Below are positions 13,008-31,542 of a DNA stretch of 35,816 nucleotides, piece by piece; within the stretch, counting starts at the first letter, position 1, and each line of letters begins with the position of its first letter. The notes beneath the pieces are model-generated. The model was not told the origin of the DNA. It did not search any database and worked only from the letters and a program-made list of their open reading frames with translations. Both the position numbers and the translations under genes were made by a program. Source of the DNA: Thiobacillus sp. 65-29 (GTDB taxonomy: Bacteria; Pseudomonadota; Gammaproteobacteria; Burkholderiales; Thiobacillaceae); assembly GCA_001899775.1 (NCBI GenBank), contig MKWN01000050.1, positions 1 to 35,816 on the forward strand. Reading direction: 5' to 3'.

Positions 13008-13010
13008 CGC

Positions 13011-15473: not shown

Positions 15474-15507
15474 GCAAAGAATTGTAGCTTCGGCCATACT
15501 TCGCGGC

Positions 15508-16782: not shown

Positions 16783-16784
16783 GA

Positions 16785-18188
<1,404 letters not shown>

Positions 18189-18326
18189 GTAGGGTTCCTG
18201 CGACGGCCTGTTGCGCATGTGGCAACACCAATCGAGGCAGACGGACGTGATCGGGATGATCGCTGCAAAACCCGGGTCGATTGGCAGACACGGGACACCC
18301 GGCGGGTCCGGGCGTGGGAATTCGGG

Positions 18327-18401
18327 TGGTGGGCAGTACAAGGTTCGAACTTGTGACCCCCGCCGTGTGAAGGCGATGCTCTACCGCTGAGCTAACTGCC
18401 C
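18327..18401 (-). tRNA. tRNA-Val(CAC)
   Basis: A full cloverleaf can be drawn: acceptor GGGCAGT/ACTGCCC, D-arm AGCTCAGCGGTAGAGC, anticodon loop TTCACAC with anticodon CAC, and a T-arm containing GTTCGAACC. The encoded 3' end is ACCA. The promoter at 18415-18444 drives it. Confidence 0.95.
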
Positions 18402-18414
18402 CGAAGCGGGCCGA

Positions 18415-18444
18415 ATTAAAACACACACCGACCGCCGCGGTCAA
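18415..18444 (-). promoter_or_regulatory. Promoter of tRNA-Val
   Basis: On the minus strand, a -35 TTGACC (18439-18444) and a -10 TTTAAT (18415-18420) are separated by 18 bp. Transcription would start a few bases before the tRNA 5' end at 18401. Confidence 0.6.
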
Positions 18445-18499
18445 TTTTCGCGCGCGGCGATCCGGTAAAATGGCAGCTTTTTTCCAGTCGGCCCGAGTC

Positions 18500-19888: not shown

Positions 19889-19907
19889 AACGGGCTGCGG
19901 ATTCCGC

Positions 19908-19920
19908 TATAATGCGCGCT
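19908..19920 (+). promoter_or_regulatory. Host tRNA-Thr promoter (-10 and discriminator)
   Basis: A consensus TATAAT at 19908-19913 is followed by a GC-rich discriminator (GCGCGC) typical of stringently controlled stable-RNA promoters, 15 bp before the tRNA 5' end. The -35 is weak (CTGTAA at 19883). It survives the insertion on the host side and now points into the mobile element. Confidence 0.6.
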
Positions 19921-19927
19921 GCCTTAC

Positions 19928-19965
19928 GCCGGCATAGCTCAGTTGGTAGAGCAGCGCATTCGTAA
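19928..19965 (+). pseudogene. Host tRNA-Thr(CGU), 5' half (split by the element)
   Basis: This is positions 1-38 of a tRNA: acceptor strand GCCGGCA, D-arm TAGCTCAGTTGGTAGAGCA, anticodon 5' stem GCGCA and the 7-nt loop TTCGTAA with anticodon CGT. The matching 3' half (stem TGCGA, T-arm, TGCCGGC-ACCA) lies at 31505-31542. Joined at the shared loop, the two give a 76-nt tRNA-Thr with a G27/A43 mismatch at the base of the anticodon stem. The bases after 19965 do not continue a tRNA, so the gene is interrupted. Confidence 0.93.
19959..19965. repeat. attL core (anticodon loop)
   Basis: TTCGTAA, identical to 31498-31504. Flanking bases differ on both sides (GCA before and GTA after here; TCT before and TGC after at attR). 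The crossover therefore lies within exactly 7 bp, the overlap length used by lambda-type tyrosine integrases and also the full tRNA anticodon loop. Confidence 0.9.
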
Positions 19966-20014
19966 GTAGCACGTCCAGAGCCAGAAAAGCCAGTAACGGC
20001 GCGGGCTTACGGGG

Positions 20015-20043
20015 TTGCAGGGCAAGGCTAATAAAGGTTTAAT
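20015..20043 (+). promoter_or_regulatory. Candidate promoter for the element tRNA-Thr
   Basis: TTGCAG (20015-20020) and TTTAAT (20038-20043) with a 17-bp spacer. Transcription would begin about 10 bp before the tRNA 5' end. The -10 overlaps an arm-type integrase site, so integrase binding could affect it. Readthrough from the host tRNA promoter is an alternative source of transcript. Confidence 0.4.
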
Positions 20044-20046
20044 AAC
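20027..20046 (+). repeat. Left arm-type integrase sites (paired)
   Basis: Two TAATAA cores at 20029-20034 and 20040-20045, 11 bp apart (one helical turn). The same pair with the same spacing and orientation occurs at the right end (31359-31364 and 31370-31375); CTAATAAAGGTTTAATAAC and its counterpart match at 16 of 19 positions. Position and symmetry fit arm-binding sites for the integrase N-terminal domain. Confidence 0.6.
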
Positions 20047-20060
20047 GGTTTCAGGAGTGC

Positions 20061-20136
20061 GCCGCTTTAGCTCAGTTGGTAGAGCAACCGCTTCGTAAGC
20101 GGTAGGTCATCTGTTCGAGTCAGATAAGCGGCACCA
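20061..20136 (+). tRNA. Element-encoded tRNA-Thr(CGU), replacement copy
   Basis: A 76-nt tRNA with every stem perfectly paired: acceptor GCCGCTT/AAGCGGC, D-arm GCTC/GAGC, anticodon stem ACCGC/GCGGT, T-stem ATCTG/CAGAT, and encoded ACCA. The loop TTCGTAA gives anticodon CGT (threonine, ACG codons). Threonyl identity bases G1-C72, C2-G71, G35 and U36 are present. The D-region is identical to the host tRNA for 19 nt and the anticodon loop is identical, but acceptor, anticodon and T stems differ. It is followed by a terminator. It most likely supplies the decoding function lost when the element split the host gene. Confidence 0.95.
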
Positions 20137-20149
20137 TCTTCAAGGCGAG

Positions 20150-20175
20150 CGGCCATCCTCCGGGGTGGCCGTTTT
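20150..20175 (+). terminator. Rho-independent terminator after the element tRNA
   Basis: CGGCCATCC and GGGGTGGCCG form a 9-bp stem (one G-T pair) with a 4-nt loop, followed by TTTT. It lies 13 bp after the tRNA 3' end and would separate tRNA transcription from the convergent terminase gene. Confidence 0.75.
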
Positions 20176-20193
20176 GCTATGGGGCGTCTGACC

Positions 20194-21585
20194 TCAGACG
20201 TACATCACCCGGTCCCCGGTATCGGGCAGGCGGCGCGGCGGCGAGAAGTCGCCCACGGCTACATGCCCAGAGGAGGCCCCGGCGATCAGGTAGGACGTAG
20301 CATCAAGGGCGTGATCGACCGCCCGTGTATCAACGTCCTCCGGGTTCCGCGGATCGCGGGGCAGCGCCGGGACGGTCTGCAACCAGAACCGGCAGCGCGA
20401 GGTGACAAAGAACTCGCCCTGAACCATCAAGGACTTCAGGGCCTCGAAGCGAGGCACCCGCGGCCCCTTCCGGGCGGGCGTCACCCTGACCCCGGCTTCC
20501 CGGAACAGGTCGCTGATACTCGCCTCCATCCGGCCCGCCGTCCGGGCTTCCGCGGCGGAGTCGATCACGCCCCGGGCGCGGATTCCGTTCCGGGCGCAGA
20601 CGGCGTGAAGGGCGGGCGCAATCTGGCCCGGGGTCCGGCCCGTCCCACGGCTCAGGTTCCGGGGGTCGAACTCCGCGTGTTCGTCGTACAGGACCCAAGC
20701 CCCCTTGGGCAGTACCCGGTCGTCAGGCAGGCGCACGTCATAGGCGAGCTGTCCGCCCAACATGGCGACCATCGGGGCGGCGGAGCCCCAGTCAATGCCG
20801 AGCTTCAGCGAGGCGAACAGGTGCGGCGGTAGGTCGTGGTGGTCGATGACCATTTGATCGGCCCGCCACGTCCCGGCGAAGAAGTCCCCCGTGATCGCGG
20901 ACCAGTCGCCCGTCCGCATCGCCTTGTACAGCGCCGGGTCCGTATGGCGCAGCACCTCGAAGTTCCGGCGGTAGGCGTCCGGGAGGTGCGGGTTGTCGTC
21001 AAGGACGCTGGGGCAATACACCCAAGAGTTCCCCCCGAACTCGAACGGCACGAAGGGCTCCCGGCCCGTGACGTACCGCTCCGCGAGGGCGGAGTGATTC
21101 GCCCCGCCCGGGTTCCCGGCAAGGATCATGCGCAGGGGGACGCCCGGGGCGCGGAGCGATAGCCCGAGCTGGTCAATCACCTCCATCCCCGGGCCTTCGC
21201 CCGCCTCATCCACGGCGATGAGCGAGAAGTTCATGCCCTGGGCTACGTCGCTGATGGAGCTGGAGGACTCGCAGTGCGTGAGCTGGATCGTCCCGCCGTT
21301 GGGCAGGCGGAAGATCGAATCATTCATGTTGAATTGGACGCCCGGCCCGAAGGCGGACCGGAGCAGCGCCCGCAACTCCTCCGCGAACTGGAGCAGCGAC
21401 TTCAAGCGGCGGCGCGTCACGAGGACCCGGGCGCGGTTCTTGTACTGCTGGACGTGTCGCAGGATCAGGAGTTGTAGGCCGAAACTCTTGCCGCCCCCGC
21501 GGCCACCGCCAAGGAACAAGAAATGGTCCTCCGGGACCATCAGGACCTGAGCTTGGAACGGGGTCGGGCGGATTGTTTGGGTCAT
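20194..21585 (-). CDS. terL: Phage terminase large subunit
   Basis: A 463-residue DNA-packaging motor that looks intact. The ATPase half has Walker A GGGRGGGKS (26-34), Walker B LIAVDEAGEG (122-131) and the coupling motif LAGNP (155-159). The nuclease half has acidic residues D265 (LGIDWGS), D342 (GVIDSAAE) and D424/D428 (DHALDATSYL), the RNase H-like pattern of TerL. The start at 21585 has GGAGGGAGG upstream; the longer frame above it is not coding. It is the last gene of the leftward late-type operon. No portal or capsid gene accompanies it. Confidence 0.9.
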   Translation of the reverse strand: MTQTIRPTPFQAQVLMVPEDHFLFLGGGRGGGKSFGLQLLILRHVQQYKNRARVLVTRRRLKSLLQFAEELRALLRSAFGPGVQFNMNDSIFRLPNGGTIQLTHCESSSSISDVAQGMNFSLIAVDEAGEGPGMEVIDQLGLSLRAPGVPLRMILAGNPGGANHSALAERYVTGREPFVPFEFGGNSWVYCPSVLDDNPHLPDAYRRNFEVLRHTDPALYKAMRTGDWSAITGDFFAGTWRADQMVIDHHDLPPHLFASLKLGIDWGSAAPMVAMLGGQLAYDVRLPDDRVLPKGAWVLYDEHAEFDPRNLSRGTGRTPGQIAPALHAVCARNGIRARGVIDSAAEARTAGRMEASISDLFREAGVRVTPARKGPRVPRFEALKSLMVQGEFFVTSRCRFWLQTVPALPRDPRNPEDVDTRAVDHALDATSYLIAGASSGHVAVGDFSPPRRLPDTGDRVMYV

Positions 21586-21788
21586 GTTGCCTCCCTCCAT
21601 ACGCCAACCCCTTCCCGCACCCGGCCCCACGTCATCGGCGGAGCCCGCACACCGCCCAAGACACCGGGCGCGGGAGGAGTTGAACAGGGGACAGCCCCGG
21701 AGCCTTCCGCCGCCCCGCGCCTCGTGAGGGGCGAGGCTGAGTGCGTGAGGTTGGACGGCTTCCGGCCCGGGGCTGAACTCGGTTGTTG
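21586..21788. other. Non-coding gap upstream of terL
   Basis: 203 bp with no convincing gene. It contains the terL ribosome-binding site and a 14-bp motif (21628-21641) that recurs with one change at 23322-23335, at a similar distance upstream of the next large gene. This could be a regulatory or packaging site; nothing else stands out. Confidence 0.5.
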
Positions 21789-22043
21789 TTAGATCGGGTC
21801 GCCGCCGCGGGTCATGCCCAAGAGGCTGACCACGTCGCCTTCGATCCAGACGGCGGTATCCGCGGGCAGCGTGCTCACGTCCCGGGCGGTCCAAGAGGCG
21901 GGAACCTCGGTGGAGCCGTTCGGGGCTTGGGCGTTGGCGACGGCGCGGGCGGTCGCCTCGTCAGCCGCGGTCACGATGACGGCCTGAAGGCCGCTGGGGT
22001 TCCGGTCCTCGGGGCGGGTACGGTAGAGCAGGAAAGTTGCCAT
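21789..22043 (-). CDS. Small hypothetical protein (84 aa)
   Basis: An 84-residue soluble protein with GGAG 9 nt upstream of the ATG. The first half (FLLYRTRPEDRNPSGLQAVI, then AADEATARAVANAQAP) reads like a small alpha/beta domain; the end is VWIEGDVVSLLGM. I do not recognise it. It sits between the zinc-finger gene and terL in the leftward cluster. Confidence 0.65.
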   Translation of the reverse strand: MATFLLYRTRPEDRNPSGLQAVIVTAADEATARAVANAQAPNGSTEVPASWTARDVSTLPADTAVWIEGDVVSLLGMTRGGDPI

Positions 22044-22065
22044 GATTCAAAACTCCTTCAGTTGT

Positions 22066-22254
22066 TCAAAGTTCGCGGGCCTTCTCGATACAGGCCGCAC
22101 ACATTCGGTTTCCAGCGTGCGCGCTCCAGAAGTCGCCGCCACACATCAGGCAGCGGCGGACCTTCACGCGCGGGTCATCGTCACGGAAGAACCGGGCATT
22201 GGCCCCGGCCCGCGGACGGGCGGGGAGGCGGGAGGACTTCGCCTTCGCGTTCAT
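22066..22254 (-). CDS. Small zinc-finger protein (62 aa)
   Basis: A basic N-terminus (about 30 residues) precedes a C-x2-C (CLMC) and C-x2-C (CAAC) pair separated by 14 residues, a classic small zinc ribbon. Phage and satellite genomes often carry such proteins near terminase genes. A DNA- or RNA-binding role is likely, but no specific function can be given. Confidence 0.7.
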   Translation of the reverse strand: MNAKAKSSRLPARPRAGANARFFRDDDPRVKVRRCLMCGGDFWSAHAGNRMCAACIEKAREL

Positions 22255-22263
22255 CGCCGCCGG

Positions 22264-22515
22264 TCACTTGCCGAAGTAGTCCCGCAGGCCCACAAGGAAC
22301 AGGGCCACGGAGCCGGTGATGAAGATGCTCAACAAGGTAAGCATCCCCTTGCTGCGCAGGTCCTCCCCGGCCCTCCGCCATTGGCGGAGGTGCTGGAAGT
22401 CCCGCTGCATCTCAATCGGGTTCGATGGGTCGGCCCCCATCTGCACGAGGGTTTCCCGGACGGCCTCCGCGATGAGCTTCTTCAGGTCGTCATGGGTCAT
22501 GTTTTGGAGGCTCAT
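22264..22515 (-). CDS. Small membrane protein (83 aa), holin-like size
   Basis: The N-terminal 55 residues are charged and helical (MTHDDLKKLIAEAVRETLVQMG). One membrane helix at about 59-77 (LTLLSIFITGSVALFLVGL) is followed by a short tail. Size and position would suit a holin or a membrane-bound superinfection factor, but there is no lysin gene beside it, so the holin reading is weak. It starts 2 bp after the stop of the 251-aa gene and is surely co-transcribed. Confidence 0.7.
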   Translation of the reverse strand: MSLQNMTHDDLKKLIAEAVRETLVQMGADPSNPIEMQRDFQHLRQWRRAGEDLRSKGMLTLLSIFITGSVALFLVGLRDYFGK

Positions 22516-22517
22516 GC

Positions 22518-23273
22518 TCAGGCCTCGCTTTCATCGTCGGCTTCGGCAATCGCCTGACGGGACAAGGCCAGCGACAGGTTCGTGATCCCGTCCGCCTTGC
22601 CGCGGACAAACTCGCGGTCAGCGGCGACGGCGGACTTGTAGGCGAGCTGGACGCCTTCGAGCTTCGCCGTCATGCGCTTCCAAACCTCGCCCAGCATCCG
22701 ATCCGCGAAAGCCTGCACGGCGAACGGGCGGCGATCCTTCGGGCGGCGGTCGATCACGGTGGCGATGGCAGCGCCCAGCACGAGGTCCGCGGTCATGATC
22801 GCGGTCCGGGCGGCGGTTTCCATTTCAACCGGCCCGGCCCCTTCGAGCTGGAGCTGGTATTGGGTGCGCTTCGGATCGCCCAAGGCGACACGGCCCAGCA
22901 TCGTCGCGGGCGAGGTGTACACGGCTTGGATGGCGGCGGCTTCCGCTGCGATGGTCTGGAGGCCCTTGAGCATCGCGGCGCGGTCCGCTTCGGAACTGGC
23001 GATGAGCTGGCGGTGGATGTTCGCGGCCTTGTTCGCGGCGTTCTTCTTGGCGAAGGCGCGAGCGGTGGCGCGATCCTCCGGGGAGGCGGAGGTGATGAAT
23101 TCTTCGGCTTCCCGGGTGTAGTTGTTCCGGGCGTCCATGACCGTGTTTTGCAGCTTCTCAACCTTGCGGGAGAAGGCGGTGGCCGTTTCGGCGGCACGGT
23201 CGCTGAGGTATTGCGCGCGTTCCTCGTTCAGCGTCACGCCGGAGGGAACGGTGTTGAAGTCGATGGTTGCCAT
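22518..23273 (-). CDS. Helical hypothetical protein (251 aa)
   Basis: A 251-residue, alanine-rich, strongly helical soluble protein with long coiled-coil-like stretches (SRKVEKLQNTVMDARNNYTR; AFAKKNAANKAANIHRQLIA). It has no cysteine and no signal. I do not recognise it. Its position at the head of the late-type cluster, ahead of terL, would suit a scaffold, capsid-modifying or packaging factor. That is speculation, and structure prediction would be needed to place it. Confidence 0.65.
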   Translation of the reverse strand: MATIDFNTVPSGVTLNEERAQYLSDRAAETATAFSRKVEKLQNTVMDARNNYTREAEEFITSASPEDRATARAFAKKNAANKAANIHRQLIASSEADRAAMLKGLQTIAAEAAAIQAVYTSPATMLGRVALGDPKRTQYQLQLEGAGPVEMETAARTAIMTADLVLGAAIATVIDRRPKDRRPFAVQAFADRMLGEVWKRMTAKLEGVQLAYKSAVAADREFVRGKADGITNLSLALSRQAIAEADDESEA

Positions 23274-23442
23274 GTTTCGGGTTCCTCGGAAAAGTCATCA
23301 CGACTAGGAAGGCCACCAAAACACGTCATCGGAGGGGCCATTCCCACCTACACGCCGGGCGCTGGTGCCCGGTCGCTTTCGAGGAACCATACTGGACGAA
23401 TGTACAGCGCGGCAAGGACTATTTCTTGTATAACTCCTTGAT
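23274..23442. other. Intergenic region with candidate late promoter
   Basis: 169 bp. On the minus strand, TTGCCG (23410-23415) and TATGGT (23386-23391) are spaced by 18 bp and could drive the leftward 251-aa-to-terL operon. A 9-bp inverted repeat (GGTTCCTCG at 23280-23288; CGAGGAACC at 23380-23388) and a 6-bp hairpin (23355-23372) lie in the predicted leader. The 14-bp motif shared with 21628-21641 is at 23322-23335. Confidence 0.4.
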
Positions 23443-23766
23443 CTACTTTACTTTTTCGGCTTCGAGTGGGGTGCAGACAATGGCCCGGTCCAGCGGTCGG
23501 CTGGGGTCCGGGCGGCAGTCCATGCGCTCGAACCGGGACGGCTCCGGCCTCCTGCTCAGGGGCTCCGCCGGTGCGACCCGGACGGGCGGAGCGAGGCGCG
23601 GCGAATGCGTGCCGACCTGCGCCCGGCGGACCGTATCCAAGGCGGAGTATGGGCGGGGCTCCTCCGGTGCCGCCTGCGTGGCGAGGGGCAGCAGGACGCC
23701 CAAGGCGAGGACGGCGAACCGCCGGGCGGCGCGGCTATGCGTCGCGGTCGTTGATGTTGATGACAC
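23443..23766 (-). CDS. Exported hypothetical protein (107 aa), GTG start inside terS-like gene
   Basis: The protein starts at GTG 23766, with GGAGGAG 7 nt upstream, and overlaps the preceding gene's 3' end by 32 bp in another frame. A signal peptide (RRFAVLALGVLLPLATQA, AxA-type cleavage) leads into a proline- and arginine-rich periplasmic part of about 70 residues with two cysteines. There is no lipobox, so it is not an obvious Rz1 spanin. The function is unknown. A longer in-frame ATG at 23898 lies deep inside the upstream gene and is rejected. Confidence 0.6.
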   Translation of the reverse strand: MSSTSTTATHSRAARRFAVLALGVLLPLATQAAPEEPRPYSALDTVRRAQVGTHSPRLAPPVRVAPAEPLSRRPEPSRFERMDCRPDPSRPLDRAIVCTPLEAEKVK

Positions 23767-24175
23767 GGCTGTACTCCTCCGCCGACAGGGCGGCGTTGAT
23801 CTGGATGAGGACCCGGGGCTGGTCGTTGTTCCCGTCGCCCTTGTTGATCTGAAAGATGTTCGAGGCGAGCCATTCCGCGGCCTTGAAGTCCCCCTCATTC
23901 TTCATCTTGTCTTTCATGAAGGCGACAATCTCCCCGGCTCCGTCCGCCCGGCCCTCCTCAAGGGCGAGCTGTAGCGGGCTCAGGTCCCCGTCCTCGCCGT
24001 CCGCCTCCTTCAGGCGCTTCCACTGGCTCGGGGTGAGGGATAGCGCCCGCCGGATCGTGTGCTCACGGTTCCCCTCCGCGGCGAGCATCCGCACGAGTTC
24101 GAGGTGTCGCGGTTCGAGGTCGGGCAGCGCCAGCGCGCCCCCGGTCGGGTTCTTGGTCAGTTGGTTGTTGGACAT
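23735..24175 (-). CDS. Possible terminase small subunit (HTH protein, 146 aa)
   Basis: Residues about 28-60 form a helix-turn-helix (AAEGNREHTIRRALSLTPSQ), followed by a helical linker containing LALEEGRADGAGEIVAFMKD and a hydrophobic end. That pattern (HTH, then an 'EEGRA' helix) is common in small terminase subunits and in phage HTH regulators. The presence of terL in the same operon favours TerS, which would recognise the pac or cos site. It overlaps the recombinase gene's stop by 19 bp. Confidence 0.55.
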   Translation of the reverse strand: MSNNQLTKNPTGGALALPDLEPRHLELVRMLAAEGNREHTIRRALSLTPSQWKRLKEADGEDGDLSPLQLALEEGRADGAGEIVAFMKDKMKNEGDFKAAEWLASNIFQINKGDGNNDQPRVLIQINAALSAEEYSRVININDRDA

Positions 24176-24768
24176 GATTCCATTTCCTTCTTGATGCGAT
24201 AGATGGCTGATACTCCGACCTGCGCGATGCGGCGGATGCGGTTGATGGGCGTCCCGGCCTTGAGCAAGGCGGCGATCTTCTGTTCCTTGCCCGGGGAGAC
24301 GGTCGGACGGCCCAAGGTCTTGCCCTGCTTCTTCGCACGAGCAAGGCCCTCAAGCGTCCGCTCCCGGATCAGGTCCCGTTCGTACTCCGCGAGCACGCCC
24401 AGCATCCCGAACTGCATACGCCCGAACGGCGTGGAGGAGTCGAGGGCCTGCCGGTGCAAGAACAAATCGACGCCCAGCGCCTGTAGCTCGGTCCCGATCT
24501 GAACGAGGTGCGACAGCGAGCGGCCCAAGCGGGAGAGTTCCACCACGGCAACCATGTCGAACTTGCCCAGTACCGCGGCTTTCATCATGGCGTCCAGACC
24601 CGGGCGCTTGTCGCGGCCCTTGGCTCCGCTGATACCCTCATCGACAAACTCAGCGGCCAGCGAGTAACCCTTGGCGGCGATCCAGTCCGCGAGGACAAGC
24701 CGTTGGTTCTCCACAGTCTGGTCCTTGTGGGTGGATACACGGAGGTATGTGGCAACGCGGCGGGTCAT
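24157..24768 (-). CDS. Serine recombinase (resolvase/invertase family)
   Basis: A 203-residue small serine recombinase. The catalytic serine is S12 in YLRVST, with supporting arginines R10, R80 and R83 (ELSRLGRS). The long E helix carries EYERDLIRERT, and a C-terminal HTH (INRIRRIAQVGVSAIYRIKKE) follows. Length is standard for resolvases and invertases. Its role may be multimer resolution or DNA inversion; no inverted target pair was found. The start overlaps the GIY-YIG gene's stop as ATGA, so the two are translationally coupled. Confidence 0.9.
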   Translation of the reverse strand: MTRRVATYLRVSTHKDQTVENQRLVLADWIAAKGYSLAAEFVDEGISGAKGRDKRPGLDAMMKAAVLGKFDMVAVVELSRLGRSLSHLVQIGTELQALGVDLFLHRQALDSSTPFGRMQFGMLGVLAEYERDLIRERTLEGLARAKKQGKTLGRPTVSPGKEQKIAALLKAGTPINRIRRIAQVGVSAIYRIKKEMESCPTTN

Positions 24769-25238
24769 GGTGCGGCCCTCCCCAGCGATGACCGGAGCCG
24801 GGTGACGGCTTCCCCGAACTGCGACAACAGGGCCGGGTCATGGTCGAGCCGGGTCATGGTGCGGGCCAGCTCCTCCCGGTTTTTCGCGTACCAGTCGTCA
24901 GGATCGAACCGCTCGCCACCCCGGCCAAGGTTGTGATTGAAGCCGGTCGGGTGCAGGGTATCGAAGGCCCAGATGTAGAAGGTTTCGCGGTCGTCCAGCT
25001 CCTCCGGGGCGCACAGCTCCACGATCTCAAACAGGAATGTGTCCGGGCCTTCTTCCCACACCGCCCGCGCAAGGTGGGCGTTCCCTTCGGTCCTGCGGTG
25101 ATCGGCCCAGCGGCTGCGGATATTGACCGACTGGCCCACGTACCGCTTGCCCGTGGGGCGGTGCGTCAGGAGGTAGATGCCCGAAAGCGGGCCGGAGGCT
25201 TCGCCCAGCAGGCGGGCGGTCATCGTTGCGCGGTTCAT
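24765..25238 (-). CDS. GIY-YIG endonuclease
   Basis: A 157-residue protein with a GIY-YIG domain at about 18-105: GIY at 20-22, YVG at 33-35, catalytic-type R in NIRSRWADH, glutamate E85 (DDRETFYIW) and asparagine in GFNHNLGRGGE. The C-terminal 45 residues are helical and may bind DNA. No intron hosts it, so it behaves as a freestanding nuclease. It is coupled to the serine recombinase (4-bp overlap) and follows the 91-aa gene by 2 bp. Defence against a competing phage or a homing role are both possible. Confidence 0.88.
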   Translation of the reverse strand: MNRATMTARLLGEASGPLSGIYLLTHRPTGKRYVGQSVNIRSRWADHRRTEGNAHLARAVWEEGPDTFLFEIVELCAPEELDDRETFYIWAFDTLHPTGFNHNLGRGGERFDPDDWYAKNREELARTMTRLDHDPALLSQFGEAVTRLRSSLGRAAP

Positions 25239-25240
25239 GG

Positions 25241-25516
25241 TCAGACCTCCAAGCCTTCAATCTGTCCAAGGGCCTCAAGGGCTTCTTCGAGGCTCCCCGA
25301 TTCGAGGGCGTCCGCGGCGCTGGACAGGTTGCACGCCGCTTCCTCCATCGCCTGCCCGCGGTCCCCGCCTTGGAGCCCTTCGGGCATGTTGTCGAACTTC
25401 TCCTGTTCCGCGTCCGCTAGCTCGCGGAGTTCGCCCGCCAGCGCCTCCGCTTGGGCCTTCAGGGCTTCGATCTGGCTGATGATGGCGTTCGCCTTCTTCC
25501 GGTCTGTCGCGTTCAT
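25241..25516 (-). CDS. Conserved small phage/plasmid protein (91 aa)
   Basis: A 91-residue acidic helical protein (MNATDRKKANAIISQIEALK, then EEQEKFDNMPEGLQ-like EQEKFDNMPEGLQ, then AADALESGSLEEALEAL). This pattern recurs in phages and plasmids without known function. The start is at 25516 because AAGGAG lies 8 nt upstream; an ATG nine codons earlier does not fit the site. It is the first gene of the leftward operon, behind the promoter at 25563-25591. Confidence 0.75.
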   Translation of the reverse strand: MNATDRKKANAIISQIEALKAQAEALAGELRELADAEQEKFDNMPEGLQGGDRGQAMEEAACNLSSAADALESGSLEEALEALGQIEGLEV

Positions 25517-25562
25517 GGCTGGGGCTCCTTTTCGTGTTGGCATGAATCTTGCATATGACGAT

Positions 25563-25591
25563 AGTATAGCTGGAGCCTTACTGAAAACGAA
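25563..25591 (-). promoter_or_regulatory. Candidate promoter of the leftward operon
   Basis: On the minus strand, TATACT (25563-25568) with TTCGTT (25586-25591) 17 bp upstream. The predicted leader is about 40 nt and contains the strong ribosome-binding site of the 91-aa gene. The -35 matches only half of the consensus. Confidence 0.5.
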
Positions 25592-25765
25592 CCTATTCAG
25601 TGCGCGGGAAACGCGGGGTAGTGGCGCTGGAATCTATGGCGCTCCGCCGGTGTGGTTTCGGAGACGTTTTCGGAATTGTTGAATCAGGGCGCAGGGCGGC
25701 AGTGCGCGGGTGCCAACAGGCCCAAGCAGGGCGCTTCCTCCGGCTCCTTCTGTTCTTCTGCTTCC

Positions 25766-25937
25766 GGTAACAGGTAAGAGGTAACAGTAAGGGTTAGAAA
25801 CTTAGGAAGGCCGGAACGGAAGAACGGAGGAAGGGGAGCGGCGGCACCCCGCCCCTCTGGGCGCCTCCTCCTCCGCTTCCGTCCTCCGCCCCCCGGCGTC
25901 TAAACGAACCCATAGTGTTACCCCTTACCCTGTTACC
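25766..25937. other. Candidate replication origin with inverted iterons
   Basis: Direct repeats GGTAACAG at 25766-25773 and 25780-25787 (14 bp apart) are mirrored by the reverse complements at 25916-25922 (last base changed) and 25930-25937. Between them lies a purine-rich arm (around 25805-25840) answered by a pyrimidine-rich arm (around 25865-25890), forming a large imperfect inverted repeat. The region is the main non-coding gap of the element (25517-26091), near the AEP-VapE gene. As I recall, satellite P4's alpha protein binds GGTGAACA-type iterons, similar in style. Function is inferred. Confidence 0.5.
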
Positions 25938-26091
25938 TCAGCCGTCCGGCCTTCGCGCCTCATCGGAAGGCCCCGACCCATCAACGGATGGACTCCCCGG
26001 CACCCTCCAGCCCAGCGAGGGCGCGGCACCTCCGCCCGCGGTGCCATTACCTTCGCCGTCCGACCCGGAGGGCCGGAAGAACGGCGGCGGG

Positions 26092-26400
26092 TCAGTGCCT
26101 CACTTCGGCGTAGTCGATCACGTCTAGCATCAGCCCGAGTTGGTCAGCGAGGCGCTGCATGTCGGCGTCGCGTTCGCCTGCACCCGTCCCAGCTTCCCGT
26201 GTCGCATCCCACAGGAGGTCTTGCAGCAGGACGCCCAGAGCGGCGCGGAGGGTGCCTGCGTCGTGCCGCTGCTCATCTTCTTCGAGGTCCAGCAGCCTGA
26301 CGGCGAGGCTCTGCACGGCGCGGTGGCTGACATAGCGTTCGTCGGCCTCGTGGTGGGCAACGCGCAGGGCTTCGAGGGTTTCTTTCTCAGTCGTGTACAT
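26092..26400 (-). CDS. Small hypothetical protein (102 aa)
   Basis: A 102-residue acidic helical protein starting MYTTEKETLEALRVAHHEAD. The ATG at 26400 has AAAGGAG 8 nt upstream; an ATG two codons earlier is too close to the site. There is no signal or membrane segment. I do not recognise it. It lies between the primase terminator and the candidate origin, so it may be expressed separately from the primase. Confidence 0.65.
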   Translation of the reverse strand: MYTTEKETLEALRVAHHEADERYVSHRAVQSLAVRLLDLEEDEQRHDAGTLRAALGVLLQDLLWDATREAGTGAGERDADMQRLADQLGLMLDVIDYAEVRH

Positions 26401-26435
26401 CGTCATTTCTCCTTTACATACAAGATTTGCCGGGT

Positions 26436-26460
26436 AAAAAGGGCCACCCGGCAGTGGCCC
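26436..26460 (-). terminator. Terminator after the primase gene
   Basis: On the minus strand GGGCCAC and GTGGCCC pair (7 bp, 6-nt loop) and are followed by TTTTT. It lies 16 bp after the primase stop. Confidence 0.85.
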
Positions 26461-26476
26461 GTTAAAACTTGCGCAG

Positions 26477-28909
26477 TCAGAACGGCGGGCGGTGGCCGTC
26501 GCCTCCCGCGGTCGCGTCCTCGCTTTCGGGCTTGCCCGGTTCGCCTTCGCCTTCCCAGACGAAGATGTTGCTGGGCTTCCCATCCACCTTCACGGTCTGC
26601 GGGACCTTCTTCCAGCCCAGCGCCTGCATCGCGGTCTTGACCATCCGGGGGACCTTTCCCACCCGCTTGTCGCGGGTCAGTCCGAGGTGTCCATACACGG
26701 CGTCATTCGTCACGATCCACCGGCCCGCCCACTGCCCCGTTCCGCGCTGGAGGCAGGCGCTCAGGTCGTGGAGCGATTCCACGAAGCCCTCATCCACCAC
26801 CCGGCGGCGGTCCTGCTCCTGCTTCGCCAGCGCCTCCGCCTCCGGGCTCAGGAGCAGGCGGTGCGAGTCGGAGCGGTAGCGGGCCAGCGCCTCCGCCACC
26901 AGTTGATCGCGCACGGCGGCGAGCCCTTCGAGGTTTCCACGGGCCACCCGGACGGGCCAGAAGCGGCGGTTGCCGGTCGGGTCGTGTAGATAGCGGTCCT
27001 CGTTGGTCGTGCCTGCCAATACAAACCGGCGGGGGACGGTAACGGCGGTGCGGGCGTAGGCGAGGCGTCCTTTGTCCTCTTGGCGGGTGATCGCGGCCTT
27101 GAGGGTTTCCACCTCCTTCCGGCTCATGCCGTCCAGCTCTGCGCATTCGAGAATCCAGACGCCCGCCGTGACCTCCAAGACCTCGCGCGCATCACGCGCC
27201 CCGAGGAAGGAGGCATCAGAGAAGCGGTCAGCGCAGGTCAGGTCCAAGGTGCCGGTGGCGAGGACGCGCAGGGCGGTCGATTTGCCCAAGCCGGTCGCGC
27301 CCTCAAGGACCAGCATCTGGTCGAACTTCGCCCCGGGCTCGAAGGCCCGCACGATGGCCGCGGTCAGCCAAGCGGCCCCCGCCTCCCGGGTGTAGGCGTT
27401 GTCCTCCGCTCCGAGGTAATCCACCAGCCAGGTATCGAGGCGCGGCGTTCCATCCCACGGGGGCAGCGCGTGGAGGTGGTCGAGCAGCGAGTCAAAGCGG
27501 TTTTCCGTGCAGAGCGACAAGACCGCGTTGCGTGGATTCACCTCGCCCGGGTCGAAGCCGAAGCGGCGGATGATCGCGTCACGCAAGATGCGCTCCGCGT
27601 GGTCGGAGAAGTCGCCCGCGTACTCGTCCAGCTCGTGCGAGCCGATGAGGTGCCGATCCCGGAACTTGTCATAGCGGCATTCCACGCCCATCAGCATCAG
27701 CGCGGTCCGGGTGTTCCAGTAGCTCGGCAGCGGTTCGCCGTTCTGGTTCATCCGATCCCACGTCAGGACCTCGCCGCCCGGCAGCGTCCCGGCGGTCCCG
27801 TCCCCCTTCGCCACTTCGGCAAAGGCGCGATTGACTTGGCGCTCAACGTACCGGCGCTTGTTCCCCTTCTGCGCGCTGACGTGCTCGTAGAAGGCGGCGT
27901 TGTTCGAGTCGAGCAACAGCCCGGCGACCAGCTCCTTGGGCGCGCCCACCCGGGCGAGGTGGCAGGTAACGGCAAACACCATGTCGCTGCGGTCGCCGTC
28001 ATACTTCGAGGTGTCCCCGGTCGTCACCAGCGCCAGCGCCCAGTCGTCAATCGTCTTTCCGTTCGCATCGGCCCATGCGGTCAGCTCCGCCGTGCCCACG
28101 GTCGGCGGGATCGCGGCGTCAGCGATCTTCCACTTGTCCGCGGGGGGCTGCTTCGAGCGCGGCGCGACCTGTCCGGCGGTCGCCAGCGGCGCGGCCTCCT
28201 TGGGCTGGTCGGCGTATGCCTTCAGCTTGTCGAAGTCCTCCGCGGCGTAGCGGCGGGAGAAGTCCGCCCCCGGAACCAGCGAGGACAGGGCAGGCCCGCG
28301 GCCCTTCGCCGCCTTCTTCTTGTTGGGCACGTTGATAGTGCCCGGGAGGCGTAGGAGGCGCGTGCAGTCTTGGGTATTGTCCGCGCGGGCTTCGTCCTTG
28401 CTGTAGGCGTTCTGTAGGCCCCGGTTGATCGCCTCGCCCAACAGCAGCTCCGGCGGTTCGTTGCCTTCGCCCTTCCACTGCGGAATCATCAGCGGTTCGC
28501 TCAGCAGCCACACCGCCTGATACCCACCACCGCTCGAAACGATCAGCGAAGGCGACGGCACGCCGTCCCGCGGGGTCGTCAGCAGCTTGTAGATGCGCTC
28601 CTGCTCGCTGGCGAGTTCTTCCCCGGCCCGCGGATCAACATCAATATGGAAGGCGCGGAAACCGGCGATTTGCTCCTTGCTCGCTTTCTTGGTGAGGCGG
28701 GAGCGCACGAGGTTGATGTGGTAGTAGATTCCCCGCTTGCCCTGATGGCCTTCGATCCACGCGGCGGCGGCGTCCGCCTCGCTGGGCTTGAAGGTCCGCG
28801 TCTCGGCTCCGCCGTCCGGCTCGATTGCCGTGAGGCTCCAGCCGTGTTCCGGCGACAGGCGGCGCAGGAAGTCGATAGCGGCGGCGGTATCGTGTTTGAG
28901 TTGTTCCAT
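26477..28909 (-). CDS. Primase-helicase: AEP primase fused to VapE-type helicase
   Basis: An 810-residue replication protein. The N-terminal archaeo-eukaryotic primase domain has the metal pair D90 and D92 (FHIDVDP) and the SGGGYQAVW strand (126-134). The C-terminal VapE-type helicase has PPWDGTPRLDTWLVDYLG, Walker A EGATGLGKST (536-545), Walker B around ILECAEL (586-592) and NRRFWPV (647-653). The last 100 residues look like a winged helix. VapE/primase proteins drive replication in several phage-satellite families. The start at 28909 overlaps the AlpA-like stop as TGATG and has GGAGGG upstream. It very likely acts on the origin at 25766-25937. Confidence 0.92.
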   Translation of the reverse strand: MEQLKHDTAAAIDFLRRLSPEHGWSLTAIEPDGGAETRTFKPSEADAAAAWIEGHQGKRGIYYHINLVRSRLTKKASKEQIAGFRAFHIDVDPRAGEELASEQERIYKLLTTPRDGVPSPSLIVSSGGGYQAVWLLSEPLMIPQWKGEGNEPPELLLGEAINRGLQNAYSKDEARADNTQDCTRLLRLPGTINVPNKKKAAKGRGPALSSLVPGADFSRRYAAEDFDKLKAYADQPKEAAPLATAGQVAPRSKQPPADKWKIADAAIPPTVGTAELTAWADANGKTIDDWALALVTTGDTSKYDGDRSDMVFAVTCHLARVGAPKELVAGLLLDSNNAAFYEHVSAQKGNKRRYVERQVNRAFAEVAKGDGTAGTLPGGEVLTWDRMNQNGEPLPSYWNTRTALMLMGVECRYDKFRDRHLIGSHELDEYAGDFSDHAERILRDAIIRRFGFDPGEVNPRNAVLSLCTENRFDSLLDHLHALPPWDGTPRLDTWLVDYLGAEDNAYTREAGAAWLTAAIVRAFEPGAKFDQMLVLEGATGLGKSTALRVLATGTLDLTCADRFSDASFLGARDAREVLEVTAGVWILECAELDGMSRKEVETLKAAITRQEDKGRLAYARTAVTVPRRFVLAGTTNEDRYLHDPTGNRRFWPVRVARGNLEGLAAVRDQLVAEALARYRSDSHRLLLSPEAEALAKQEQDRRRVVDEGFVESLHDLSACLQRGTGQWAGRWIVTNDAVYGHLGLTRDKRVGKVPRMVKTAMQALGWKKVPQTVKVDGKPSNIFVWEGEGEPGKPESEDATAGGDGHRPPF

Positions 28910-29139
28910 CACACGCCCTCCGCGGTATGGTTTTGTTCGTTGGCGGTCAGCCACTCGTCAAGGGCGGCGCGGCGGTACAGGACCCGGCGGCTCAACTTCG
29001 CGTAGCGCGGGCCACCGCCCTTGACGCGCAGGCCTTCGAGGGTCTGGCGGGACAGGCGCAGGTAGATCGCGGCTTCCTCGGTCGTGAATACCGCGAGCTG
29101 CATCACCTGCTCGATGCTCAGAGGGTTACGCGCGTCCAT
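28909..29139 (-). CDS. AlpA/excisionase-like HTH protein
   Basis: A 76-residue HTH_17-type protein: FTTEEAAIYLRLSRQTLEGLR, then GGPRYAKLSRRVLYRRAALDEWL, the classic wing of AlpA/Xis-like proteins. It may direct excision or activate the operon. AGGAGGG precedes the ATG; the gene overlaps the upstream 205-aa gene by 14 bp and is coupled to the primase. Its C-terminal tail is short. Confidence 0.85.
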   Translation of the reverse strand: MDARNPLSIEQVMQLAVFTTEEAAIYLRLSRQTLEGLRVKGGGPRYAKLSRRVLYRRAALDEWLTANEQNHTAEGV

Positions 29140-29743
29140 CTTCGCGGCCCTCCTTCAGCAGGTACTCGATGAGCGACCGCCCAAAGCAGAGCGCGTGGGC
29201 TTCGTCCAGGTCATACAAGAGCTTCAGGAAGGGCTCGCTGTCGGTCAGCGCGGGGTCAGCTTCGATCCGCTGGCGCAGCTCCTTCTCGCGGCGCAGGACT
29301 TGGGCGACGGCCTGAATGAACAGCTCGCACACCTCATCGTCGGTGGCATCGCCGTGCTTCTCTGCCAGTTGCCGGACGCGCCCAGCCGGGAGGCCGGTTT
29401 CAGCGGTCAGCGCCTCAAGCGAGTCACCTCCGGCCAGCAGGAAGGCGGTGATGAAGGGGTGCGGGGCGTCGTCAGGGGTAGCGCGAACCTGATTGACCGC
29501 ATCGGCGCAGTGCCATGCGAGGTTCAGGACCTCTTTGCGGAAGGTGCGGCGCTTCTCCTGCTTTTCCTCATAGGCGTCGATTTCGTCCTTGTACCAAAAG
29601 GACGCGCGCCGCCCGGGGACCTTGTGCGGCTTCGGGAAGGTGGGATCGTGTTTGACTTTCCAGTAGATGTTTGCAACGGACTTCTTCGTGTGGAAGGCCA
29701 CTTCCGTCGCGTTGAGCTTGATGCGGTTGTTCTTCTCGGTCAT
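29126..29743 (-). CDS. AlpA-like DNA-binding protein with helical extension (205 aa)
   Basis: Residues 8-57 form an AlpA-like winged helix (KLNATEVAFHTKKSVANIYW, FPKPHKVPGRRASFWYKDEIDAYE). The remaining 145 residues are helical and unlike known families, with a second possible HTH around GGDSLEALTAETGLPAGRVR. First gene of the regulation/replication operon, so it may be a master regulator of the element, analogous to satellite Stl or AlpA in position only. Confidence 0.75.
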   Translation of the reverse strand: MTEKNNRIKLNATEVAFHTKKSVANIYWKVKHDPTFPKPHKVPGRRASFWYKDEIDAYEEKQEKRRTFRKEVLNLAWHCADAVNQVRATPDDAPHPFITAFLLAGGDSLEALTAETGLPAGRVRQLAEKHGDATDDEVCELFIQAVAQVLRREKELRQRIEADPALTDSEPFLKLLYDLDEAHALCFGRSLIEYLLKEGREDGRA

Positions 29744-29957
29744 GGTCGGGGACTCCGATCACGGCCCGCGCCACCAAAAAGAAAGGAGGCAGCGCAAGCC
29801 AATGTTTGGCTCACGACTGCCCCCTTGCATCACGCTCGGATTTGAGGTGGCTCCTGTCCGGCTATCGCATCACGCTCCGCCCCGGACTCTCGCCCACCTA
29901 GCAATCACTCAGGTCGCCCCGGATCACCCGGGGCTGATGGACTTATTCTAACCCTAA
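29744..29957. other. Structured leader/regulatory region of the regulator-primase operon
   Basis: 214 bp without a gene. It contains a nested inverted repeat (GGCAG/CTGCC around AGCCAA/TTGGCT, 29788-29821), a direct repeat GCATCACGCTC (29827-29837 and 29877-29887, 50 bp apart), and a hairpin CCCCGG/CCGGGG (29917-29933). These look like operator sites for element regulators or a folded leader RNA. No confident promoter was recognised. Confidence 0.45.
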
Positions 29958-29984
29958 GAAAAACCGTTTTAGAAGCGGTTTTTC
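29958..29984 (-). terminator. Terminator after the integrase gene
   Basis: GAAAAACCG and CGGTTTTTC form a 9-bp stem with a 9-nt loop and a T-tract in either direction. It ends leftward transcription of the integrase, whose stop is at 30029, and isolates it from the regulator operon. Confidence 0.8.
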
Positions 29985-30028
29985 GTGTCAGATACACCTC
30001 TAAGGGATTGATCTATATACTTTTTACT

Positions 30029-31345
30029 TTACTTTTTCGGGTCCTTTTCTGGCACAACTGCTTGTCCCTTCTGGCTTTTCTTCGAGCCCTCGCACAGGAG
30101 GCGCAGCCGGTCGGAAATCTGCTGCATCGGCCCGCGCAGGTACTCTTGGTCAGGGGTGTAGTAGTTGCGCGTGATCTTCCGGCTGGACCGGGCCGACACG
30201 GCGTGGTTCACCAAGACTTGAATGACCGGCTCCGGGATGCCGAGCTGGTACGCCTGCGTGATGAACGTATGGCGCAGCCCGTGAATCGAGAAGGGGACGG
30301 ACAGCTTCACCTTGGGCTCGCTGATGTGGCCGCTCGCGCTTTCCGCCGGGAACACATAGGGCGAGTTGGGGAAAGCCTTGTTGGTCAGCTCGCATTCCTG
30401 CCGCTTCTTCAACAAGTCAATGAGGTAGTCCGACAGGGGGAGGAAGAAGGCCCGATCCTTGCCGCCCTTCGGGTTGGGCACATACAGCGCGCGGTCGTCC
30501 CACTTCACATGATCCCATTCGACCTCCGCAGCGGAGCCCCGGCGCATCCCCGTGAATAGGACAAACAAGAGATAGTCCCGGCGGATCGGGTTGTCCAAGC
30601 CCAGCACCTCGGCAAACCAGCGGGGCAGGTCCTTGTCTGGGATGGCGGCGTCCCGCTCCTCCTCCCTGTACCAATCGACCGCGATGCAGGGGTTGTCGGG
30701 CATCCCTTCATACTGGCGGGCGGCGCGGTTGTAGATCGCCCGGAACACGCGCATGACGGAGTTGGCGGTGTAGCGGCCTGACTCCTCGGTGCGCTCTTTC
30801 TTGTAGGTTTTCCCGTTCTTCGGGGTCACGGTCGCGTACTTGCCCGCGGCGATGTCGGCCACGATCTGATGATGGCGGCTGTTCGCGTCCTCCCGGGTGA
30901 TCGAGGCCAGCGGCTTGTTCAACCAGTCCTCAAGGTAGCGCGTCATCAGGTACTCATAGTCACCGATGGTCCGGGCGCTGCGGCCCTTCGCCTTCATCGT
31001 CTTGAGCGTCAGCTCAAGCCCCTCCTTGAGGCTGATGGTCTGGTTCTTCGGCGCGAGCCCGACCCGGGCGGAGGACGGCGGCGCGAGCCCTTGCAGTTCG
31101 AGTAGTGCCGCCTTCGCCTTCTCGCGGCCTTGGTCAAGGGTCAGCTCCCCGTAATGCCCAAGGGTGACGCGGCGGCTCCCCCTCTGGGCAAAGAATGTCT
31201 TGGTCCTCGCGCCCACGACAACCCCGAAGCCTGGCAAGGCGGTATCGAACAGGACCCGTTGCCGGTTCCCCTTCTCAGTCGTCACAGGTTCGGCGCTGTC
31301 CAGTGCCGTCTTGGTCAGCTTGATCTTCTCGCTGTAGGTGCCCAT
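30029..31345 (-). CDS. int: Tyrosine recombinase (integrase)
   Basis: A 438-residue phage-type integrase. The N-terminal arm-binding region (DUF4102-like) has VTLGHYGELTLDQGREKAKA, followed by a core-binding domain at about 105-215. The catalytic domain shows R in TGMRRG (about 268), H355 and R358 in IHGLRHTF, H381 in VNHAVS and the nucleophile Y395/Y396 in RNYYTPD. The start at 31345 follows GAGGCGG; the ATG at 31357 has no site. It lies 152 bp from attR, and paired TAATAA arm sites lie just upstream, so the gene may be autoregulated. It is the enzyme expected to have cut the tRNA anticodon loop. Confidence 0.93.
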   Translation of the reverse strand: MGTYSEKIKLTKTALDSAEPVTTEKGNRQRVLFDTALPGFGVVVGARTKTFFAQRGSRRVTLGHYGELTLDQGREKAKAALLELQGLAPPSSARVGLAPKNQTISLKEGLELTLKTMKAKGRSARTIGDYEYLMTRYLEDWLNKPLASITREDANSRHHQIVADIAAGKYATVTPKNGKTYKKERTEESGRYTANSVMRVFRAIYNRAARQYEGMPDNPCIAVDWYREEERDAAIPDKDLPRWFAEVLGLDNPIRRDYLLFVLFTGMRRGSAAEVEWDHVKWDDRALYVPNPKGGKDRAFFLPLSDYLIDLLKKRQECELTNKAFPNSPYVFPAESASGHISEPKVKLSVPFSIHGLRHTFITQAYQLGIPEPVIQVLVNHAVSARSSRKITRNYYTPDQEYLRGPMQQISDRLRLLCEGSKKSQKGQAVVPEKDPKK

Positions 31346-31356
31346 AATCCGCCTCA

Positions 31357-31376
31357 TCTAATAAGGGTCTAATAAG
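31357..31376 (+). repeat. Right arm-type integrase sites (paired)
   Basis: TCTAATAAG occurs at 31357-31365 and 31368-31376, 11 bp apart, matching the left-end pair at 20027-20046. A further inverted TAATAA (TTATTA, 31464-31469) is closer to the core. They overlap the leader of the integrase gene. Confidence 0.6.
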
Positions 31377-31497
31377 CGACAGCGTAGAAGCCGGAGGGGT
31401 TTTGGACCTCCTAACCTGCTAACTTGCGCGCCGCAACTCCCCGTAGGATAAGGCTTTAGGCCATTATTAGGGAAGGGGCTGGGATTGGGGCTAGTCT

Positions 31498-31542
31498 TTC
31501 GTAATGCGAAGGTCGTAGGTTCGACTCCTATTGCCGGCACCA
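31498..31542 (+). pseudogene. attR core plus 3' half of host tRNA-Thr
   Basis: TTCGTAA (31498-31504) followed by anticodon 3' stem TGCGA, variable loop AGGTC, T-arm GTAGG-TTCGACT-CCTAT, acceptor TGCCGGC and ACCA. It completes the 5' half at 19928. The bases before 31498 (CTAGTCT) do not form a tRNA, so no functional tRNA is made here and the half has no promoter of its own. Confidence 0.93.

What the first reader, a model, noticed from the sequence alone, without database searches (positions are those of the whole stretch)
19928..31542. Element splits tRNA-Thr(CGU) in its anticodon loop and brings its own tRNA-Thr(CGU)
Seen: the host tRNA is cut into positions 1-38 (19928-19965) and 39-76 (31505-31542), sharing only TTCGTAA; neither att junction rebuilds a tRNA. 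Seen: a complete, perfectly paired tRNA-Thr(CGU) lies inside the left end (20061-20136). Known: most tRNA-targeting elements restore the gene by carrying a matching 3' (or 5') part. Here the element destroys the target and complements it in trans-like fashion with a non-identical tRNA. This looks like an unusual 'replace the gene you break' strategy that would also make the host dependent on the element.
Basis: partly seen in the sequence, partly recalled or inferred. Interest (0 to 1): 0.93.

Follow-up and report, generated by a model that had tools for sequence, protein, structure and literature searches.

The report
Mobile element replaces tRNA it breaks
In a draft genome of a likely Thiobacillus, an 11.5-kb mobile element splits a threonine tRNA gene exactly at its anticodon loop and carries a complete tRNA with the same anticodon beside the break, the only such tRNA found in that genome; the carried copy likely takes over the lost job, probably driven by the broken gene's own promoter, and relatives of the element in other bacteria have the same layout.

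Summary
Joining the flanks gives an intact 76-nt tRNA-Thr(CGU); the two ends share exactly 7 bp, the anticodon loop TTCGTAA; neither junction rebuilds a tRNA. A relative without the element has the intact gene at the same place. The tRNA at 20061-20136 is the only tRNA-Thr(CGU) found in the draft genome.

It is not a one-off. Five related elements (terL 77-100% identical; a Thauera MAG and four IMG/VR contigs) show their left end, and all five carry a complete tRNA-Thr(CGU) 85 nt from the core; four lie in a split tRNA-Thr gene, the fifth beside another element. The carried tRNA equals a native Thiobacillus CGU gene in four; here and in one relative it is a Thiobacillus tRNA-Thr(UGU) body changed only at positions 32 and 34, in the anticodon loop. 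That switch to the broken gene's anticodon is the best evidence for replacement.

The principle is published as tRNA-dependent lysogeny. New here: a satellite-like element without recognised capsid genes, the tRNA just behind the retained host promoter, exchangeable tRNA cargo and an anticodon-switched tRNA. Expression and need are untested.

The parts
18470..19888 (+). host gltX (glutamyl-tRNA synthetase), left neighbour of the target gene
   Evidence: PF00749 and PF19269; conserved next to tRNA-Thr(CGT) in relatives
19908..19913 (+). TATAAT box of the host tRNA gene, kept in front of the broken half
   Evidence: sequence; same box 14-15 nt before the tRNA in 29 of 30 fetched loci of the genus; the strict promoter scan calls none here
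19928..19965 (+). 5' half of the host tRNA-Thr(CGU), positions 1-38; last 7 bases are the attL core
19966..20060 (+). 95-nt left arm of the element between core and carried tRNA, with repeats TAATAAAGG (20029-20037) and TAATAACGG (20040-20048) that look like integrase arm sites
   Evidence: sequence; 85 nt in the 5 relatives
20061..20136 (+). carried complete tRNA-Thr(CGU); tRNA-Thr(UGU) body with positions 32 and 34 changed
20150..20175 (+). hairpin with 9-bp stem and T4 behind the carried tRNA, terminator-like
   Evidence: stretch 20137-20185 folds at -30.3 kcal/mol; the strict terminator scan lists none here
20194..21894 (-). terminase large subunit (the 470 residues from 20194-21606 are those matched in relatives)
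   Evidence: PF04466, phrog_2; 99-100% in three IMG/VR contigs
22518..23273 (-). protein of unknown function shared by relatives
   Evidence: no Pfam or PHROG match; found in 5 of 7 close relatives
24157..24768 (-). serine resolvase/invertase
   Evidence: PF00239, phrog_125
24765..25238 (-). GIY-YIG nuclease
   Evidence: PF01541
26477..28954 (-). VapE-like primase/helicase
   Evidence: PF05272, phrog_256
28909..29139 (-). AlpA-like helix-turn-helix protein (excisionase/regulator type)
   Evidence: PF12728, phrog_66
29126..29743 (-). protein of unknown function shared by relatives
   Evidence: no Pfam or PHROG match; found in 7 of 7 close relatives
30029..31357 (-). tyrosine integrase with arm-binding domain
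   Evidence: PF00589, PF13356, phrog_1
31358..31497 (.). right arm of the element, with repeats TAATAAGGG (31359-31367) and TAATAAGCG (31370-31378)
   Evidence: sequence; aligned with relatives
31498..31542 (+). attR core (31498-31504) and 3' half of the host tRNA-Thr(CGU)
31617..32516 (-). host universal stress protein gene, right neighbour of the target gene
   Evidence: PF00582; adjacent to the intact tRNA in G097

Best explanation
An 11.5-kb satellite-like element splits the host's tRNA-Thr(CGU) gene in the anticodon loop without rebuilding it, and carries a complete tRNA-Thr(CGU) 95 nt inside its left end that likely replaces the lost gene, probably transcribed from the host gene's own retained promoter. 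Shown: the split, the 7-bp core, the intact gene in a relative without the element, the carried tRNA as the only CGU-anticodon tRNA-Thr found in the draft, and the same layout in related elements. Inferred: that the integrase at the right end exchanges strands across the 7-nt loop; that transcription from the conserved TATAAT box runs through the dead 5' half and the 95-nt arm into the carried tRNA and ends at the hairpin behind it; that RNase P frees the tRNA; that the cell benefits from it for ACG codons; and that exact excision would restore the host gene.
For: Rejoined flanks are an intact tRNA-Thr(CGU) and the ends share only the loop. Intact gene between gltX and Usp in G097. One Thr(CGT) among 37 tRNA genes. 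Left ends of 5 of 7 close relatives are visible and 5 of 5 carry a complete tRNA-Thr(CGT); 4 of these 5 have a tRNA-Thr 5' half before it, and where both halves are whole (3 of 3: L117, L130, L131) they rejoin into tRNA-Thr(CGT). The carried tRNA is identical (76 of 76) in 4 relatives whose host 3' halves all differ. In the window the carried tRNA is a Thiobacillus UGU body that differs from the genome's own UGU gene only at positions 32 and 34, giving the anticodon of the broken gene, while all 30 UGU genes compared keep C32 and T34. Host TATAAT box kept. In G062 only 9 nt separate the host part from a carried tRNA, leaving no room for a promoter. ACG is 64 of 176 threonine codons in seven long host ORFs and no CmoB passes its cut-off, so the UGU tRNA may read ACG poorly.
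Against: No expression data. In E. coli the CGU tRNA-Thr is, as I recall, dispensable. In L115 another element lies between the carried tRNA and any host promoter, so read-through cannot serve there unless that element supplies transcription. The strict scan finds neither promoter nor terminator in 19880-20200, not even the host box. G062 has a second intact gene. The draft lists no tRNA-Trp or tRNA-Ile, so it misses some tRNA genes and a second Thr(CGU) cannot be excluded.
Confidence: 0.8

Rival explanations
1. The carried tRNA replaces the broken one but from its own promoter in the left arm, as shown for mycobacteriophage Fionnbharth; its place beside the core is incidental.
For: In L115 the host promoter is out of reach behind a second element. 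By eye the arms hold weak -10-like hexamers (TTTAAT in the window, TATAGT in relatives). Fionnbharth's upstream region drives a reporter (PMC10865867).
Against: Strict scan finds none in the arm; the hexamers overlap the repeats that look like integrase arm sites; G062's 9-nt spacer leaves no room; G090's complete tRNA lacks the conserved box directly upstream.
Confidence: 0.3
2. The carried tRNA is cargo without need: the host tolerates loss of tRNA-Thr(CGU) because tRNA-Thr(UGU) also reads ACG, and the tRNA serves the element (for example in lytic growth or against tRNA-cutting defences).
For: Wobble makes the CGU tRNA dispensable in some bacteria (recalled). Phage tRNAs against defences are discussed in PMC10865867.
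Against: The carried anticodon fits the broken gene in 6 of 6 family members with a visible left end and in G062's different element, and in the window a UGU body was changed to fit.
Confidence: 0.17
3. The two host halves are transcribed apart and joined in trans, as in archaeal split tRNAs, and the internal tRNA is extra.
For: Both halves keep their sequence.
Against: The 3' half has no promoter-like box in front by eye; I saw no long complementarity next to the halves (by eye, not scored); not known in bacteria as far as I recall.
Confidence: 0.02
4. Assembly artefact.
For: Draft assembly of 61 contigs.
Against: The same layout occurs in other assemblies with different host halves.
Confidence: 0.01

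Closest known systems
tRNA-dependent lysogeny of actinobacteriophages (PMC10865867; parts 1-5 of 8 read)
   Same: Tyrosine integrase, attB in a tRNA gene, common core of about 8-17 bp that does not rebuild the tRNA, element-borne tRNA of the same isotype; arm sites around the core.
   Different: Here a satellite-like element without recognised capsid genes, in a proteobacterium; tRNA beside the core behind the host promoter (Fionnbharth's lies elsewhere, with its own promoter); carried tRNA made from an isoacceptor with switched anticodon. Need not shown here.
[quoted passage not shown] passages seen)
   Same: Integration inactivates a tRNA gene, tRNA-Leu(UAG), in its central part and the prophage holds a functionally similar tRNA.
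   Different: Intact prophages; another tRNA; position and promoter of the carried tRNA not seen by me.
Lactobacillus johnsonii prophage Lj965 (only as cited in PMC10865867)
   Same: No tRNA rebuilt at a junction; prophage codes for a cognate tRNA.
   Different: Prophage of a Firmicute; original papers not seen.
Classical tRNA-gene islands (Islander, PMC4383910; passages seen)
   Same: Tyrosine integrase and anticodon-loop crossover; such islands sit in the same gene in G096, G070 and G055.
   Different: They bring a tRNA fragment that restores the gene; here no junction is restored and a whole tRNA is carried.
Phage-inducible chromosomal islands and other phage satellites (recalled; passages of PMC10690885 seen)
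   Same: Size, integrase, AlpA-like protein, primase, a packaging gene, no capsid set found.
   Different: Large terminase subunit found, helper unknown, integrase on the same strand as the other named genes.
Archaeal tRNA-Thr disruption by a mobile element in Caldiarchaeum (PMC3293823; abstract seen)
   Same: A tRNA-Thr 5' fragment left upstream of a complete tRNA-Thr by a recombinase-bearing element.
   Different: Archaeal, 1.8 kb, with tRNA introns; no replacement in an anticodon-loop att site described in the abstract.

Membership tests
tRNA-dependent lysogeny | Tyrosine integrase with attB inside a host tRNA gene | tested here: met
   PF00589/PF13356; split tRNA-Thr(CGU). That this integrase made the junctions is inferred.
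tRNA-dependent lysogeny | Short core; no functional tRNA rebuilt at attL or attR | tested here: met
   7 bp; no tRNA at the junctions
[quoted passage not shown]
   tRNA-Thr(CGT) at 20061-20136
tRNA-dependent lysogeny | Carried tRNA is expressed and needed for viable integrants | not testable with these tools
   Only copy found among 37 tRNAs; no experiment
tRNA-dependent lysogeny | Element is a temperate phage with lytic and lysogenic growth | tested here: inconclusive
   No capsid, portal or tail match among 15 element ORFs in PHROGs; it does not look like a complete phage, a satellite is likely
Classical tRNA-gene island (Islander type) | attP carries a tRNA fragment so that integration restores the tRNA gene | tested here: not met
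   Shared block is 7 bp and no junction holds a tRNA
PICI-type phage satellite | Integrase, AlpA-like regulator and primase, no capsid genes (definition recalled) | tested here: met
PICI-type phage satellite | Integrase divergent from the replication genes (recalled) | tested here: not met
   int and the other named genes are all on the - strand
PICI-type phage satellite | Induced and packaged by a helper phage | not testable with these tools
   Four relatives with left ends are IMG/VR records, which is suggestive only

The most novel reading that the evidence does not exclude
The element's left end is a promoter-trap tRNA cassette, and the integrase recodes tRNAs: because its 7-bp exchange region is exactly the anticodon loop, recombination between a captured Thiobacillus tRNA-Thr(UGU) and the CGU core swapped the loop, making a CGU-reading tRNA that replaces the gene the element breaks.
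Probability: 0.25. Interest if true: 0.85.

Novelty: new variant of a known kind. Interest (0 to 1): 0.62.

Why it matters
It takes the replace-the-tRNA-you-break principle from phages to a small satellite-like element family and gives a natural comparison at one gene: classical elements that bring half a tRNA and these that bring a whole one. The family carries tRNA genes identical to Thiobacillus ones into other hosts, so a host's tRNA set would change on integration. The anticodon-switched tRNA makes it directly testable whether site-specific recombination in an anticodon loop can recode a tRNA. Island finders that look for a tRNA plus a fragment of the same tRNA may misplace the ends of such elements (inference from the method described in PMC4383910).

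Tried and rejected
Rejected: a tRNA rebuilt at a junction; halves joined in trans (by eye only); assembly error (relatives). A split gene without any replacement tRNA was not noticed among the matches listed for 56 genomes, but one search does not list all matches.

Led nowhere: the integrase alone against IMG/VR (none; its alignment worked); INPHARED phages at E 1e-30 (none); plasmids at 1e-40 (one 34% Legionella hit, not pursued); 369 genomes of the class at 1e-70 (only the window's own); the attL pattern in 399 genomes of the order (only the window's own); terL in 117 genomes of the family at 1e-60 (only its own); G090's spacer in 56 genomes (only itself); two DNA patterns in IMG/VR, which returned only contigs already known; the strict promoter and terminator scan (none). 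Literature searches. Williams 2002 (PMC100330) is not held and was not read.

Dropped before the left-end counts: L090 and L094, close relatives cut off before their left end (their right ends fit). L096-L100 are distant integrases (27-33%) and were not analysed beyond.
Full report
1. Observation. The host gene is split as described. ARAGORN reads the joined flanks as tRNA-Thr(CGT), 76 nt, and the two ends share exactly TTCGTAA, the 7-nt anticodon loop. The window has two tRNAs only, tRNA-Val and the internal tRNA-Thr(CGT) at 20061-20136. The window is a whole contig of a 2.9-Mb, 61-contig genome.

2. Empty site. Of 56 genomes of the genus, 33 show a full-length match (positions 1-76, 88-100%) to the rejoined host tRNA in the listing; the rest show partial or weaker matches there, some of them to other tRNAs. 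In many of the loci fetched, tRNA-Val, gltX and tRNA-Thr(CGT) form a row, and in G097 the intact tRNA lies directly between gltX and Usp (L078). G087 has the rejoined 76-mer at 100% next to gltX; G062 has it as a second copy elsewhere. A TATAAT box sits 14-15 nt upstream of the tRNA in 29 of 30 fetched loci; the window keeps it 14 nt upstream of the 5' half. The exception is G090 (below).

3. Only copy found. The tRNA model finds 37 tRNA genes in the assembly. ARAGORN on loci covering all 37 gives one each of Thr(CGT), Thr(TGT) and Thr(GGT); the CGT gene is the element's. The list has no tRNA-Trp or tRNA-Ile, so the draft misses some tRNA genes although its completeness is given as 99.99%.

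4. The element. Between the cores lie 11.5 kb: a tyrosine integrase at the right end, an AlpA-like protein, a VapE-like primase, a GIY-YIG nuclease, a resolvase and, at the left end, a terminase large subunit. Fifteen element ORFs were scanned with PHROGs and 14 of them with Pfam; none matches a capsid, portal or tail family. I call it satellite-like; a helper is not shown. Repeats TAATAAAGG/TAATAACGG at 20029-20048 and TAATAAGGG/TAATAAGCG at 31359-31378 look like integrase arm sites on both sides of the core (by eye); the carried tRNA lies just inside the left pair.

5. Relatives. An alignment of 25 integrases found 2 loci in genome contigs and 10 in IMG/VR. Seven of these 12 have integrases of 48-50% identity and share further genes of the element: the AlpA-like, VapE and 29126-29743 proteins in 7 of 7, terL in 6 of 7 (77-100% identical; the seventh, L090, is a 3.3-kb fragment). 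Five of the 7 show their left end: a Thauera MAG (L089/L106) and IMG/VR 3300017652_000165 (L092/L115), 3300017544_000126 (L093/L116/L130), 3300010313_000057 (L091/L117) and 3300005281_000287 (L095/L131). All 5 have a complete tRNA-Thr(CGT) 85 nt from the core, the window 95 nt, with a hairpin behind it (seen by eye; folded for the window, L117 and G062's element). In L117, L130 and L131 both host halves are whole and rejoin into tRNA-Thr(CGT); in the Thauera contig only positions 16-38 of the 5' half are visible, the rest is N. The four host 3' halves differ from each other; the carried tRNA does not: it is identical in L106, L117, L130 and L131, and identical to the native tRNA-Thr(CGT) of Thiobacillus G096 and G097. 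L106, L117 and L130 are 98-99% alike over 1.4 kb beyond the tRNA, so they are not independent samples; L131 aligns to them there for only about 60 nt at 82-85%, and its tRNA does not adjoin terL. All 7 right ends examined (window, L089, L090, L094, L117, L130, L131) have TTCGTAA followed by a tRNA-Thr 3' half next to int. In L115, which carries the window's tRNA at 100%, the sequence left of the core is not a tRNA half but leads to another integrase (34% to the window's, 40% to L115's own), so two elements lie in tandem. Outside these records the element is rare: integrase in 2 of 117 genomes of the family at 1e-60 (itself and G079), 1 of 369 of the class at 1e-70 (itself); terL in 1 of 117 (itself).

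6. The anticodon switch. The window's carried tRNA differs from the tRNA-Thr(UGU) of its own genome and of G097 only at positions 32 (C to T) and 34 (T to C). Both changes fall in the 7-nt loop and give the loop of the broken CGU gene. In all 30 UGU genes compared, positions 32 and 34 are C and T. So the element carries an isoacceptor body whose anticodon fits the gene it breaks. Two point changes under selection explain this; so would a loop swap by the integrase, because the exchange region is the loop. I cannot tell these apart. A relative integrase (40-44% identical) in G079 sits next to a tRNA-Thr(UGU) 3' part that includes the loop CTTGTAA, with an intact UGU gene 10 kb away: I read it as a classical element that uses the UGU loop with the same geometry.

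7. Same gene, other solutions. G096, G070 and G055 have an intact tRNA behind gltX and a 3' fragment 7-9 kb downstream, like classical islands. G062 has the 5' part 1-47, then AAAGGTTTC, then a complete, different tRNA-Thr(CGT), then about 9.3 kb with another integrase, and the 3' part 29-76; its carried tRNA equals the rejoined host tRNA of L117. G062 also has a second intact gene more than 50 kb away, so there the carried tRNA is not the only one. G090 has the 5' half, 116 nt found in no other of 56 genomes, then a complete tRNA followed by the native downstream sequence (77-84% over about 199 nt in the better relatives). I read it as a scar left when such an element was lost by recombination between its tRNA and the 3' half; this is inference.

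8. Mechanism. The host promoter and 5' half stay upstream of the carried tRNA in the window; in G062 there is no room for a second promoter. This favours read-through from the host promoter with RNase P trimming. Against it, in L115 a second element lies between the carried tRNA and any host promoter, and the strict scan calls no promoter or terminator in 19880-20200 at all. I give promoter capture about 0.6 within the replacement model. ACG is 64 of 176 threonine codons in seven long host ORFs and 48 of 142 in seven element ORFs. No CmoB passes its cut-off in the genome (best 39.9 of 275 bits; in the control 1 of 14 genomes passes), so the UGU tRNA may lack the modification that widens its reading; that step is inference.

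9. Known and new. PMC10865867 defines the principle and proves it for mycobacteriophages (parts 1-5 of 8 read); it suggests wider use and cites Lj965. PMC11476347 reports a Sinorhizobium case (passages); PMC12429752 found none in phiLM21-like prophages (passages). In the searches made I saw no report in a satellite-like element, of a carried tRNA placed behind the host promoter, or of an anticodon-switched carried tRNA; the library holds open papers only, the lists were capped (one search showed 20 of 6,722), and most listed papers were not opened.

Noticed in passing
L115 (IMGVR 3300017652_000165), 11270-19551: A second element with its own integrase (34% to the window's) adjoins the left end of the window-like element at the core TTCGTAA: a tandem at one site.
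   Followed up: partly
L071 (G090), 7432-7662: tRNA-Thr 5' half, 116-nt spacer and a complete tRNA-Thr(CGT) with native downstream sequence: possible scar of a lost element that left its tRNA behind.
   Followed up: partly
L069 (G062), 5701-15187: A different element in the same gene with a carried tRNA-Thr(CGT) only 9 nt from the host part; the genome has a second intact copy of the host gene more than 50 kb away.
   Followed up: partly
L037 and L038 (G079): Element with a related integrase (40-44%) next to a tRNA-Thr(UGU) 3' part, with an intact UGU gene 10 kb away.
   Followed up: partly
L072 (G096) and L073 (G070): The two species share the same sequence behind the tRNA and before the 3' fragment, as if one classical island had entered both.
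   Followed up: no
window 30029-31357 and L089-L095: Integrases are only 48-50% identical between the window and close relatives while terL is up to 100% identical: the integration module seems to have been exchanged.
   Followed up: no
L090 (record titled Chthonomonas calidirosea MAG): A 3.3-kb contig with this element's right end and a tRNA-Thr 3' half; possibly mis-binned.
   Followed up: no
G000, whole assembly: The draft lists a tRNA-SeC but no tRNA-Trp or tRNA-Ile, so some tRNA genes are missing from it.
   Followed up: no
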